From: Plebeiibacterium marinum
GTDB lineage: Bacteria > Bacteroidota > Bacteroidia > Bacteroidales > Marinilabiliaceae
DNA: 54,891 nt
Direction: 5' to 3'
Assembly (NCBI RefSeq): GCF_026013615.1
Contig: NZ_JAPDPI010000035.1
Span: 1-54,891, forward strand
The translations under genes were made by a program, and so were the position numbers. The notes beneath the pieces were generated by a model that had not been told where the DNA came from, did not search any database, and worked only from the letters and a program-made list of their open reading frames with translations. Shown here piece by piece: positions 26,741 through 30,033 of the stretch (the stretch's first letter is position 1; each line of letters starts with the position of its first letter).

Positions 26741-27211
26741 TTACAAATCTTTTAAATCATAGCAGTGTTCGTGTTTTAATTCGCCCATAACAAAGGAACT
26801 TTGAATATTAGAGATGTTTTGTATGGTAGAGAGTTCTTTAAGTACAAATTGCTGGTAGTGCTCCATGTCTTTAACTACTACTTTTATAAAAAAGTCGTAA
26901 TTGCCAGCTATATGATAACACTCCATTGCTTGCGGAAAAGTGTTAATTTTCTCCTGAAATTCATCTACATAGCTTTTGCCATGCCGAGTTAATGATACAT
27001 GGCAAAATACAGTGAGTCCCCTGTTTATTTTTTTTGGATTTAATAGCGTAATGTATTTGTTTATAATACCGCTACGTTCCATTTTTCTGATGCGTTCAAA
27101 TATTGGTGTTCGGGTTAGGTGTAATTTTTCGGCTATTTCTTTGTGGGGAATTTTAGCATTTTGTTGCAGTAATTTCAAAATATCCTTGTCTGTTTGATCT
27201 AACTGTGGCAT
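26741..27211 (-). CDS. Lrp/AsnC family transcriptional regulator
   Basis: The 156-residue protein has the Lrp/AsnC design: helix-turn-helix at about 5-55 (LDQTDKDILKLLQQNAKIPHKEIAEKLHL... split here into LDQTDKDILKLL and KEIAEKLHLTRTPIFERIRK) and the effector-binding RAM domain at 65-150 (CYHIAGNYDFFIKVVV). It is divergent from the lyase fusion, with 173 bases between, which is the usual arrangement of such a regulator with an amino-acid catabolic gene. TTTTGC and GCAAAA half-sites face each other around 27230-27260 and could be an operator. Control of the lyase by tyrosine or another amino acid is inferred from position. Confidence 0.9.
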   Translation of the reverse strand: MPQLDQTDKDILKLLQQNAKIPHKEIAEKLHLTRTPIFERIRKMERSGIINKYITLLNPKKINRGLTVFCHVSLTRHGKSYVDEFQEKINTFPQAMECYHIAGNYDFFIKVVVKDMEHYQQFVLKELSTIQNISNIQSSFVMGELKHEHCYDLKDL

Positions 27212-27384
27212 AAAACAAATGTTTTGCTAATTGATAAATATTTGATTGAAAATAGGCAAAATGATTAAGATATACCTTAATATAAGTCAAAAAGACTAAA
27301 TATTTAAGATGTAATAGTTTATGTACCTATGAGTGTTTAATGTCTTCATAACTTTGATACAAATCATTAAACTAATAATATCTC

Positions 27385-30033
27385 ATGAAATCAGAACCGC
27401 ATAAAATAAAGACTGTACGAAACCTGAACATTACAACTTATTACGAACGTTCAGTTATTTTACGGGAGGCATTTTATAACACCTTCAATATACACAGCAA
27501 TAAGGTTACATATGATTTGGTTAGCCAGGGGAGTAGTGCCAAGAGTCAGGATCAGGAAGCCGGCAGTTTGATTGGTGATGAAACTTACGCAGGAAGCCGC
27601 AATTTTGAAAAGCTTCAGGGGATGGTAAATAAAACCTTTGGACATCAATATGTTTGTCCTACCCATAACTTGCAGGGGGCCATAAAACTTATTGTGGCCA
27701 CCATGGTAACTAAAGGTGCTGTTATTCCTTCCAATAGTAGTTTTCCGGAATTATTGATAAAGGATTTTGGTGGAAAATCAGACTTGATTGAAAAGGGCCA
27801 TGATAAGAAATATAAAGGCAATATTAAACTGGATGCCTTGTCTGTACTGTTGAGTGAAAATAATAATGTGCCATTTATTTATTTCGATCTTTATGTGGAT
27901 GGATATAAGCCTGTGTCGATGCAGTTTTTGAAAGAAGCCCATGTTTTGGCTTCAACCTATCAGGTACCGGTTGTTGTCAATGTATCGCAAAGTGTAGAGT
28001 GGGCCGGCTATGTCAGGGATAATGATGCAGAATATTCAGGGAGGTTATTGTCAGAAATAGTAAAGGAAATGGCTTCATTTTGTGAGGTTATGGTGCTGGA
28101 TGCTGCCCAGGATCCAAGATGTAACGTTGGGGGGCTGATAGGTTCCAATAACTTTGCTTTGTACGAAAGGTATATGAATGAAGTGGTAGTATATGAGGGG
28201 CTTCATACTTATGGGGGTATGGCAGGACGAACAATGGAGTTGTTTGCAAGGGGTATTGATGAGATGGTTTACGAACCTCAGGCCGGGTGGATTAAAGGGC
28301 AAATAGAACTGTTGTCTGCAAAAGTAGAAGCTCCTCACTATGTTGGGGCAGATGGTATTTACCTAAAAGCGTACAAAATTTTACCCCATATTAAAAGTGA
28401 GCAGGCCAATGCCCTGGCGGCTATGCTGTATTTAAAAGCCGGTATGCGATGCCTTGTTCAGGGTATTTATGATGATTATTCTGTTTTACCGGTTCAATTG
28501 CCACGATTGGGGTTTACAAACGATCAAATTGATTTTTTAGCCAGGGCTATTAACGAAGTGTATTCAGAAAGGGATAAGCTAACGCATTTTGTGTTGTTGA
28601 ATATGCCACAGTGGATAGACCAGGCTCAATACAATTGGAATAATCCCACATTGAGCCTTTTTAATTATGAGTGTGAGGCTTACCGGATTTACACTATTGA
28701 ATATATAGGTGTAACCACCAAAGAGGAGCGGCAGAGTATTTGTAAAGAGGTAGGCTATAATACCTTTTTATTGCCCTCAAAGGATGTTGGTATAGATTTA
28801 TTGACTGACTCAGGAACTTGCGCGCAAACAACCATACAATGGAGTAAATACAATGAGGGGGATGAAACCCCGGCATCGAGCAAAGACTATTTTGAAATGG
28901 TTGATATGCTTAAAGAGGTTACTGGATACAATTATATAATTCCTACCCATCAGGGGCGGGCAGCAGAGCATATCATGTCGCAAATATTGATAAAAGACGG
29001 TTTTGTGCCAGGTAATATGTATTTCACAACTACCAAGTTGCATCAGGAAATGGCAGGAGGAACCTTTGTTGATGTAATTTGTGATGAAGCACATGATCCT
29101 CAATCAGATTTTATTTGGAAAGGGAATATAGATATTAAAAAGATTGAGACCATATTGGATGAGCATGGTGAGGGCTCTATACCATATATTAGTTTCGAAT
29201 TTAGTGTGAACCTTGCCGGGGGACAGCCGGTGAGTATGGACAATGTGCGCGAAGTGTATTTGTTCTGCAAAGCGCATAATATCCCGGTTATGTTCGATGC
29301 CACCCGGGCGGTGGAAAATGCCTATATGATCAAGAAAAAAGATGAACGTTATCACCATGTTCCTATCAAAGATATTTTGCGCGAATTATTTAGTTATGGT
29401 GATGGTTGTACAGTTTCGAGTAAAAAGGATTACCTGGTAAACATTGGGGGCTTTTTAGGTATCAGAGAAGATCAGGATTTTTATGAAAAGGCACTTTCTA
29501 TGATCCGAATTTATGAGGGCACCAGAACCACCGGCGGCATGTCGGCAGGGGATATGTCCATGCATGCCGAAGGGGTGCGTGAAATGCTCGATTTCAACTA
29601 TATTATGGCCCGGGTAGAGCAAACTCAGTATTTGGGCAACCGTTTGTTGGATGCAGGTATCCCTATAGTGGAACCCATAGGTACCCATGCTGTTTTTATC
29701 GATGCCAAGCGTTTTTTGCCCCATATCGACCAGGATAAGTACCCAGCGCAGTCCCTGGCTTCTGAATTGTATATTGAGTCTGGTATCAGGGCAATGGAAA
29801 GGGGCAATGTGTCAAGTGGCAGGAACAGGATAACAGGCGAAAATTATCGTCCTTGCTTAGAGCTGGTCCGTCTTACCATACCTCGGCGGGCCTATACCAA
29901 GTCGCATATGGATTTAGTGGCAGATAGCATTATTGAACTGTATAAACGCCGTGATGAGATTAAAGGACTGGAGTTTGTTTACGAGCCTGAAAACCTGAGG
30001 TTTTTCCAGGGTAAATTTGAGCATGTGGATTAA
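27385..30033 (+). CDS. Fused tandem tyrosine phenol-lyase/tryptophanase-family protein with complementary halves
   Basis: The 882-residue chain holds two homologous beta-eliminating lyase domains, about 1-415 and 430-882; the usual enzyme is about 460 residues. The C-terminal half closely resembles tyrosine phenol-lyase (TPL). It keeps, in C. freundii TPL numbering recalled from memory, R100 (R525), T124 (T548), D214 (D638), R217 (R641), the PLP lysine K257 (K681 in SSKKD), R381 (R806), R404 (R829) and F448-F449 (F873-F874). It has lost Y71 (P496 in DETPAS), M288 (T713) and Y291 (T716). The N-terminal half is the reverse: Q97, P121, N199, Q202, Q242, Q359 and Q371 replace the cofactor and substrate residues, but Y71 (Y68 in DETYAG) and Y291 (Y276) remain. 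Because Y71 and M288 act across the dimer interface in TPL, one composite active site per chain is likely. Product (phenol or indole, plus pyruvate and ammonia) is probable but unproven; R806 favours tyrosine. Confidence 0.9.
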   Translation: MKSEPHKIKTVRNLNITTYYERSVILREAFYNTFNIHSNKVTYDLVSQGSSAKSQDQEAGSLIGDETYAGSRNFEKLQGMVNKTFGHQYVCPTHNLQGAIKLIVATMVTKGAVIPSNSSFPELLIKDFGGKSDLIEKGHDKKYKGNIKLDALSVLLSENNNVPFIYFDLYVDGYKPVSMQFLKEAHVLASTYQVPVVVNVSQSVEWAGYVRDNDAEYSGRLLSEIVKEMASFCEVMVLDAAQDPRCNVGGLIGSNNFALYERYMNEVVVYEGLHTYGGMAGRTMELFARGIDEMVYEPQAGWIKGQIELLSAKVEAPHYVGADGIYLKAYKILPHIKSEQANALAAMLYLKAGMRCLVQGIYDDYSVLPVQLPRLGFTNDQIDFLARAINEVYSERDKLTHFVLLNMPQWIDQAQYNWNNPTLSLFNYECEAYRIYTIEYIGVTTKEERQSICKEVGYNTFLLPSKDVGIDLLTDSGTCAQTTIQWSKYNEGDETPASSKDYFEMVDMLKEVTGYNYIIPTHQGRAAEHIMSQILIKDGFVPGNMYFTTTKLHQEMAGGTFVDVICDEAHDPQSDFIWKGNIDIKKIETILDEHGEGSIPYISFEFSVNLAGGQPVSMDNVREVYLFCKAHNIPVMFDATRAVENAYMIKKKDERYHHVPIKDILRELFSYGDGCTVSSKKDYLVNIGGFLGIREDQDFYEKALSMIRIYEGTRTTGGMSAGDMSMHAEGVREMLDFNYIMARVEQTQYLGNRLLDAGIPIVEPIGTHAVFIDAKRFLPHIDQDKYPAQSLASELYIESGIRAMERGNVSSGRNRITGENYRPCLELVRLTIPRRAYTKSHMDLVADSIIELYKRRDEIKGLEFVYEPENLRFFQGKFEHVD

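What the first reader, a model, noticed from the sequence alone, without database searches (positions are those of the whole stretch)
27385..30033. Single-chain lyase dimer in which each half lost what the other kept
The gene fuses two tyrosine phenol-lyase-type domains. In normal TPL, Y71 and M288 reach into the active site of the adjacent subunit, while K257, R217, R381 and R404 act within the subunit. Aligned by eye, the C-half keeps the in-subunit set (K681, R641, R806, R829, T548, R525) but has P496 in place of Y71 and T713 and T716 in place of M288 and Y291. The N-half is the mirror image: Q242, Q202, Q359, Q371, P121 and Q97 replace the in-subunit set, yet Y68 and Y276 remain. This complementary decay is what is expected if the duplicated domains were fused and then specialised, leaving one composite active site per chain. 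I know of no described lyase of this kind.
Basis: partly seen in the sequence, partly recalled or inferred. Interest (0 to 1): 0.88.

Follow-up and report, generated by a model that had tools for sequence, protein, structure and literature searches.

The report
Fused lyase with one shared site
A bacterial enzyme related to tyrosine phenol-lyase is built from two copies of the same protein joined end to end, where the second copy appears to do the chemistry and the first keeps only the parts that normally reach in from a partner; the same split is seen in the fused relatives examined, from many kinds of bacteria.

Summary
The finding holds and generalises. ORF 27385-30033 (882 aa) is a head-to-tail fusion of two tyrosine phenol-lyase (TPL) domains. 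I collected 59 distinct proteins of this type, labelled as eight phyla (58 with both halves at least in part). In 59/59 the N-half keeps Tyr71 and Tyr291 (TPL numbering), which reach the neighbouring subunit's PLP, but has Gln for the PLP lysine. C-halves keep the lysine (53/53 readable), Thr124 (58/58) and Arg217 (55/55), and Arg381 and Arg404 in 51/52, while Tyr71 (0/58) and Tyr291 (0/53) are gone. A scan of 99 conserved columns found six kept in N and lost in C; all six lie in the two cross-subunit loops. N and C halves each form one clade. AlphaFold gives pTM 0.83 and 0.91, but those loops are weak in the window model and no coordinates were available to measure Y68-K681. Best reading: a single-chain pseudo-heterodimer with one TPL-type active site per N/C pair, probably in amino-acid catabolism. 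The principle is known for other PLP enzymes; I saw no report for this family in the paper listings searched. Activity and substrate are untested.

The parts
27385..30033 (+). fused TPL-type lyase, 882 aa
   Evidence: TIGR02618 855.9 bits over two stretches
27385..28659 (+). N-half (residues 1-425): degenerate TPL domain that keeps the cross-subunit residues
28660..30030 (+). C-half (residues 426-882): TPL domain with PLP lysine and substrate residues
27571..27594 (+). N-half trans loop 1 (residues 63-70, TPL 66-73), holds Y68 (=TPL Y71), D65, E66, G70
   Evidence: Y, D, E, G kept 59/59 in N-halves; Y71 and G73 in 0 of 58 C-halves, D68 in 5 of 58
28189..28230 (+). N-half trans loop 2 (residues 269-282, TPL 284-297), holds L273 (=M288), Y276 (=Y291), G281, R282
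   Evidence: Y291, G296, R297 kept 59/59 in N-halves, in 0 of 53 readable C-halves
28108..28110 (+). Q242 in place of the PLP lysine (K257) in the N-half
   Evidence: Q in 59/59 N-halves
29425..29427 (+). K681, PLP lysine (=K257) of the C-half
   Evidence: K in 53/53 readable C-halves
28870..28872 (+). P496 at the Y71 position of the C-half
29521..29532 (+). T713-T716: positions M288 and Y291 of the C-half, both replaced
29800..29802 (+). R806 (=R381), TPL-type substrate residue
   Evidence: R in 51/52 readable C-halves; the exception, L117, may be frameshifted near its end
26741..27211 (-). divergent Lrp/AsnC-family regulator
   Evidence: PF01037 and AsnC-type HTH; a divergent Lrp relative lies upstream of the fusion in six other loci
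27212..27384 (.). intergenic region between the regulator and the lyase

Best explanation
The gene encodes a pseudo-heterodimer of the tyrosine phenol-lyase family in one chain. The C-half binds PLP on K681 and holds the substrate (R829, N609, T548, R806, F873, F874). The N-half has lost its own PLP site and supplies Y68, L273 and Y276 to the C-half's active site, as the neighbouring subunit does in ordinary TPL: Y68 is the likely proton donor to the leaving group, and Y68 and Y276 bond the PLP phosphate. So each N/C pair has one live composite site and one dead site. The likely reaction is TPL-type beta-elimination (L-tyrosine to phenol, pyruvate and ammonia) in amino-acid catabolism. Shown by sequence: the fusion, the complementary loss, one clade per half, wide spread. 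Inferred: that the pair forms within one chain, that the N-site is dead, and tyrosine as substrate (perhaps 60% likely).
For: Key residues in 59 N-halves and 58 C-halves. Scan: 6 of 99 conserved columns kept in N and lost in C, all in the two trans loops; 27 lost in N and kept in C. Mean pairwise identity: N-halves 92.0% in trans loops, 52.3% in own pocket, 44.8% elsewhere; C-halves 47.2, 99.0, 64.2; single-domain proteins 75.9, 86.5, 53.9. Tyr74 and Tyr307 of tryptophanase act on the neighbour's PLP (PMC2770544, passages) and map to Y68 and Y276. In TPL Tyr71 protonates C-gamma, Arg381 and Thr124 hold the substrate OH (PMC9262865, passages). C-halves share 15 residues with TPL that tryptophanases and N-halves lack; N-halves share four with TPL, among them L288 and H289, and none with tryptophanase. 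N and C each one clade, local support 100. AF2 pTM 0.83 and 0.91; in the second model the aligned half (53% identical, so taken to be the C-half) fits 1c7g at TM 0.97, 1.8 A. Neighbouring genes of amino-acid catabolism in Bacteroidales-type loci.
Against: No coordinates, so the Y68-K681 contact is not measured. In the window model the trans loops themselves are weak (residues 61-70 mean pLDDT 54, 65-69 under 50; 271-280 mean 63) and so is the start of the C-half (441-490 mean 37-70); the fit to TPL there has rmsd 11.7-13 A. The homologue's model is better (about 75 in both loops). No activity data. 34 of 59 N-halves keep R217 and 38 of 59 keep D214, so decay of the N pocket is uneven. C-halves carry invariant residues unlike TPL (window W578, F604, E605, D653, G672, D782, N808), so the substrate may differ. 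Tyr71 is not vital for all substrates of the family (PMC3870968, passages). The tree tool warns that long branches meet. In the window only Lrp adjoins; none of the other operon genes was found there.
Confidence: 0.87

Rival explanations
1. A variant of the best explanation, its share included there: the composite site is made between chains, the N-half of one chain pairing with the C-half of another, with two live sites per homodimer.
For: TPL and tryptophanase are tetramers (PMC9262865, PMC2770544, passages); the residue pattern is the same for both pairings. The stretch between the last strand of the N-half and the first of the C-half is short (residues 418-433 in the model).
Against: High pTM of single-chain models suggests packing within the chain, but a one-chain prediction cannot see a swap.
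Confidence: 0.2
2. The N-half is a regulatory or binding domain whose loops are kept only for folding; the C-half works alone.
For: N-halves have invariant residues of their own in the old pocket (N95, K101, S201, D239, Q242 in 59/59). Tyr71 is not indispensable for every substrate (PMC3870968, passages).
Against: The C-half, taken to fold as TPL, lacks these loop residues, so the fold does not need them. The Y71F form of TPL is called inactive (PMC11301627, passages).
Confidence: 0.06
3. The protein is no longer a lyase; both halves have drifted to a new role.
For: The C-half alone falls below the TPL equivalog cut-off (628.5 against 720.7) and has invariant residues unlike TPL.
Against: 18 pocket positions are 99.0% identical among the C-halves.
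Confidence: 0.05
4. Assembly or gene-calling artefact joining two neighbouring lyase genes.
For: Other genomes carry adjacent TPL and tryptophanase genes, and the 46 named fusion records are all MAGs.
Against: Fusions of similar length in many records, 47-70% identical to the window chain in a 34-row alignment, no stop between the halves; the adjacent single genes keep lysine and both tyrosines.
Confidence: 0.01

Closest known systems
Tyrosine phenol-lyase (EC 4.1.99.2; TIGR02618; PDB 1c7g, 2ez1, 9j3u)
   Same: C-half 53% identical to 1c7g, with the cis catalytic and TPL-specificity residues; the N-half keeps the trans residues
   Different: Ordinary TPL is one domain of about 456 residues whose every subunit both gives and receives trans residues; here the roles are split over two fused domains
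Tryptophanase (EC 4.1.99.1); the genome's own paralogue on C168 passes the NF053783 tryptophanase cut-off
   Same: Same fold, same Tyr74/Tyr307 cross-subunit contacts
   Different: Single domain; the positions of D137, the Ile of tryptophanases and H463 are T, R and F in the C-half
Eukaryotic serine palmitoyltransferase LCB1/LCB2
   Same: PLP fold-type I pair thought to have one active site; LCB1 lacks the PLP lysine but has other residues predicted to act in catalysis (PMC3794620, passages)
   Different: Two separate chains, different family and reaction
Glycine decarboxylase P-protein (E. coli GcvP; Thermus subunits 1 and 2)
   Same: Fused PLP pseudo-dimer: the N-part of GcvP matches Thermus subunit 1 (1wyt_A), the C-part subunit 2 (1wyt_B); one active site per pair is recalled, from no call
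   Different: Different family and reaction; here no unfused two-gene form was seen in the loci read

Membership tests
Tyrosine phenol-lyase | NCBIfam TIGR02618 equivalog cut-off (720.7 bits) | tested here: inconclusive
   855.9 for the whole chain because two domain scores add up; C-half alone 628.5, N-half 226
Tyrosine phenol-lyase | PLP lysine and cis residues (K257, R217, R404, N185) | tested here: met
   C-half K681, R641, R829, N609
Tyrosine phenol-lyase | TPL-type specificity residues T124, R381, F448 | tested here: met
   C-halves: T124 58/58, R381 51/52, F448 51/51 of those readable
Tyrosine phenol-lyase | Trans residues Y71 and Y291 on the same domain as the lysine | tested here: not met
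   they are on the other half: N 59/59 for both; C 0/58 and 0/53
Tyrosine phenol-lyase | cleaves L-tyrosine to phenol, pyruvate and ammonia | not testable with these tools
   needs an assay
Tryptophanase | Asp, Ile and His at TPL positions 124, 381 and 448 | tested here: not met
   T548, R806, F873 in the window C-half; TIGR02617 and NF053783 below cut-off
PLP pseudo-heterodimer with one dead partner (SPT, GDC type) | one partner lacks the PLP lysine | tested here: met
   N-half Gln in 59/59
PLP pseudo-heterodimer with one dead partner (SPT, GDC type) | one live site per pair, shown by structure or PLP count | not testable with these tools
   no coordinates, no biochemistry

The most novel reading that the evidence does not exclude
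The dead N-half pocket has been rebuilt rather than abandoned: its invariant N95, K101, S201, D239, Q242 and W302 form a new ligand site (an Asp now stands at the S254 position, a PLP-phosphate contact as recalled), making the fusion a lyase whose single live site is controlled through its former twin site.
Probability: 0.25. Interest if true: 0.88.

Novelty: new variant of a known kind. Interest (0 to 1): 0.76.

Why it matters
It is a natural experiment in subfunctionalisation inside one chain: evolution has separated the residues that act in cis from those that act in trans in a well-studied PLP enzyme, in agreement with the published cross-subunit contacts of tryptophanase. It would give a one-site, single-chain TPL in which trans residues can be changed without touching the catalytic domain, useful for questions of cooperativity in an enzyme used to make L-DOPA. 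It is also an annotation trap: the whole chain passes the TPL cut-off by adding two domain scores (four other fusions also pass as whole chains).

Tried and rejected
Separate N- and C-type subunits as a two-gene form: suggested by adjacent hits; in the loci such pairs score as ordinary TPL plus tryptophanase, and all 79 single-domain proteins collected keep Y71, K257 and Y291. The pairs itself were not fetched. The first genome-contig scan, with the N-half alone, found nothing; the scan with alignment A2 succeeded. N and C as sisters: one residue (M309) is shared by N and C alone, 15 by C and TPL, four by N and TPL, and the tree warns of long branches, so the order of duplication is left open. 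PLP kept by the N-half: thought unlikely because S254 is Asp and Q98 Asn in 59/59, though R217 and D214 survive in many.

Literature: no report of a fused TPL or tryptophanase was seen in the listings. These show only the top 2 to 20 papers each (217 papers matched,698) of an open-licence PMC library. sought the glycine decarboxylase precedent without success. Papers were seen as passages only: PMC3870968, PMC9262865, PMC11301627, PMC2770544, PMC4323232, PMC3794620.

Weak points of the counts: the row called own_paralog is a wrong, unrelated 167-residue frame of L002 and should be ignored; the right paralogue is. Rows dropped before counting: L032, L033, L059, L060, L086, L087 as second copies, and every protein identical to one already taken (46 fusion loci among the 80; 35 new). 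Cut-off fusions were kept, and gaps are not counted as losses; L124 is an N-type half running off its contig, counted as a fusion by type. The 79 single-domain proteins are hits of my own searches, not a random sample.

Full report
Observation. The ORF at 27385-30033 (+) encodes 882 residues. Pfam Beta_elim_lyase hits both halves; NCBIfam TPL scores 628.5 bits for the C-half and 226 for the N-half alone; phmmer finds TPL structures for both. The genome also carries a separate single-domain tryptophanase. The N-half alignment is unsure near TPL 49-51, 123-126 and 447-449 (compare); Y71, K257 and Y291 are stable in all of these calls.

Relatives. A 60% identical full-length fusion exists in another family of the order. 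With the N-half as query, 24 of 393 genomes of the order have a frame of 620 residues or more over the match. No such frame was found in 36 other genomes of the window's own family, 8 of them of the same genus, some incomplete. With a profile of 23 N-halves, the window's frame is the only one over 540 residues among the matches listed for 395 genomes of the phylum; the list is cut by the tool. So 59 is a lower bound. By record title and taxonomy the 35 fall in Myxococcota 8 (several titled Deltaproteobacteria), Gemmatimonadota 7, Acidobacteriota 7, Pseudomonadota 4, Bacteroidota 2, Planctomycetota 2, Thermodesulfobacteriota 2, Chloroflexota 1, with two unplaced. All 46 records are MAGs, so single labels may be wrong. 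Of the 59, 58 have both halves at least in part; L124 is an N-type half at a contig end.

Complementary loss. In 59 N-halves: Y71 59, Y291 59, Leu at 288 59, E69 59; K257 is Gln in 59, S254 Asp in 59, Q98 Asn in 59; R404 is never kept (one gap); R217 is kept in 34, D214 in 38, R100 in 6. In 58 C-halves: K257 53 of 53 readable, T124 58/58, R100 58/58, R217 55/55, R381 51/52 and R404 51/52 (the exception, L117, may be frameshifted near its end); Y71 0/58 (Pro 27, Gln 16, Ala 8, others 7), Y291 0/53; position 288 is never Met, Leu, Phe or Tyr in 53. All 79 single-domain TPL or tryptophanase proteins collected keep Y71, Y291 and K257. E69, a ligand of the monovalent cation from the neighbouring subunit in TPL (recalled, from no call), is kept in all N-halves but in 28 of 58 C-halves.

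Test without choosing residues. Of 99 columns at least 95% conserved in the 79 single-domain proteins, six are kept in N (90% or more) and lost in C (10% or less): D68, Y71, G73, Y291, G296, R297. Twenty-seven show the reverse, among them T49, S51, Q98, E103, F123, N185, S254, K256, K257, H343, R404 and F449; a few of these lie in the unsure stretches. All six lie in loops 66-73 and 288-297, which hold 11 of the 99 columns (P = 4e-7). With EhTPL added to the set it is 7 of 111, six of them in the loops, the seventh being K11 (P = 3e-6) (one search printed a figure for six of six). The loops were chosen knowing the TPL literature, and the P values treat columns as independent, so they are a guide. 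Identity between N-halves is 92.0% in the trans loops, 52.3% in their own pocket, 44.8% elsewhere; for C-halves 47.2%, 99.0%, 64.2%; for single-domain proteins 75.9%, 86.5%, 53.9%. The 59 cases are not 59 independent events: N and C are each one clade with local support 100 in a FastTree that also warns of long branches. N-halves diverge about 2.1 times as fast as C-halves (slope over 53 pairs, distance correlation 0.89) and still keep the loops.

Structural meaning. In E. coli tryptophanase, Tyr74 and Tyr307 of one subunit bond the PLP phosphate of the neighbour, and Tyr74 bonds Arg103 of the adjacent subunit (PMC2770544, passages). These map to Y68 and Y276 of the N-half and to R525 of the C-half. 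In TPL Tyr71 protonates C-gamma, and Arg381 and Thr124 hold the substrate hydroxyl (PMC9262865, passages); Y71F is called inactive (PMC11301627, passages), though loss of Tyr71 is said to affect substrates differently (PMC3870968, passages). AlphaFold2 gives pLDDT 85.3 and pTM 0.83 for the window chain, with both trans loops of the N-half and the start of the C-half weak, and 92.1 and 0.91 for the Gemmatimonadota chain L098 with a deeper alignment, both loops near 75. Foldseek puts one half of the latter (53% identical, so taken to be the C-half; ranges are not printed) on 1c7g at TM 0.97 and 1.8 A; for the window model TM is 0.85 with rmsd 13.2 A, which I take to be a misplaced arm. No coordinates are returned, so the N-C contact itself is not measured.

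Substrate and setting. C-halves carry T124, M379 and R381 among 15 residues shared with TPL alone, and N-halves L288 and H289 among four, so both sides of the composite site are of TPL type. Among the 59 loci, many of them short, the fusion lies near an aminotransferase in 8, an ornithine-cyclodeaminase-family protein in 5, an ADP-forming acyl-CoA ligase in 4 (plus a weaker match in L111) and a 2-oxoacid:ferredoxin oxidoreductase alpha subunit in 8; apart from L111 these are loci of the window's order (families). A divergent Lrp relative lies just upstream in the window, L065, L088, L104, L115, L118 and L129, labelled as three phyla, and probably in L125, whose position my script placed oddly. 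This points to amino-acid catabolism. The window gene has 41.6% GC against 34.0% for the window and 29.3-38.1% for 11 other ORFs, which with its absence from the relatives searched is consistent with horizontal transfer.

Verdict. The principle of a PLP pair with one dead partner is known from serine palmitoyltransferase (PMC3794620, passages) and from the fused glycine decarboxylase (domain match; mechanism recalled). For the TPL/tryptophanase family I saw no report in the listings.

Noticed in passing
window 27385-30033: The gene has 41.6% GC against 34.0% for the window, and no fusion-length frame was found in 36 other genomes of the family; it looks horizontally acquired.
   Followed up: partly
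L077 2008-15191 and similar loci: Gene neighbourhood in one genome of the order: ADP-forming acyl-CoA ligase, aminotransferase, fusion lyase, cyclodeaminase-family protein, a PLP decarboxylase-like protein, VorB-type ferredoxin oxidoreductase, carbonic anhydrase-like protein; parts of it recur in other loci.
   Followed up: partly
L117 5989-8883: A Gemmatimonadota fusion that lacks Arg at the R381 and R404 positions and scores low over its C-half; perhaps a frame change near the end, not examined.
   Followed up: no
window residues N95, K101, S201, D239, Q242, W302 of the N-half: Invariant in all 59 N-halves but different from the single-domain enzymes; the old pocket seems to be under selection for something.
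   Followed up: no
L142, L147, L150, L152, L153, L154, L159: Ordinary TPL-like and tryptophanase-like genes lie side by side on one strand; similar neighbours appear in the phylum search.
   Followed up: partly
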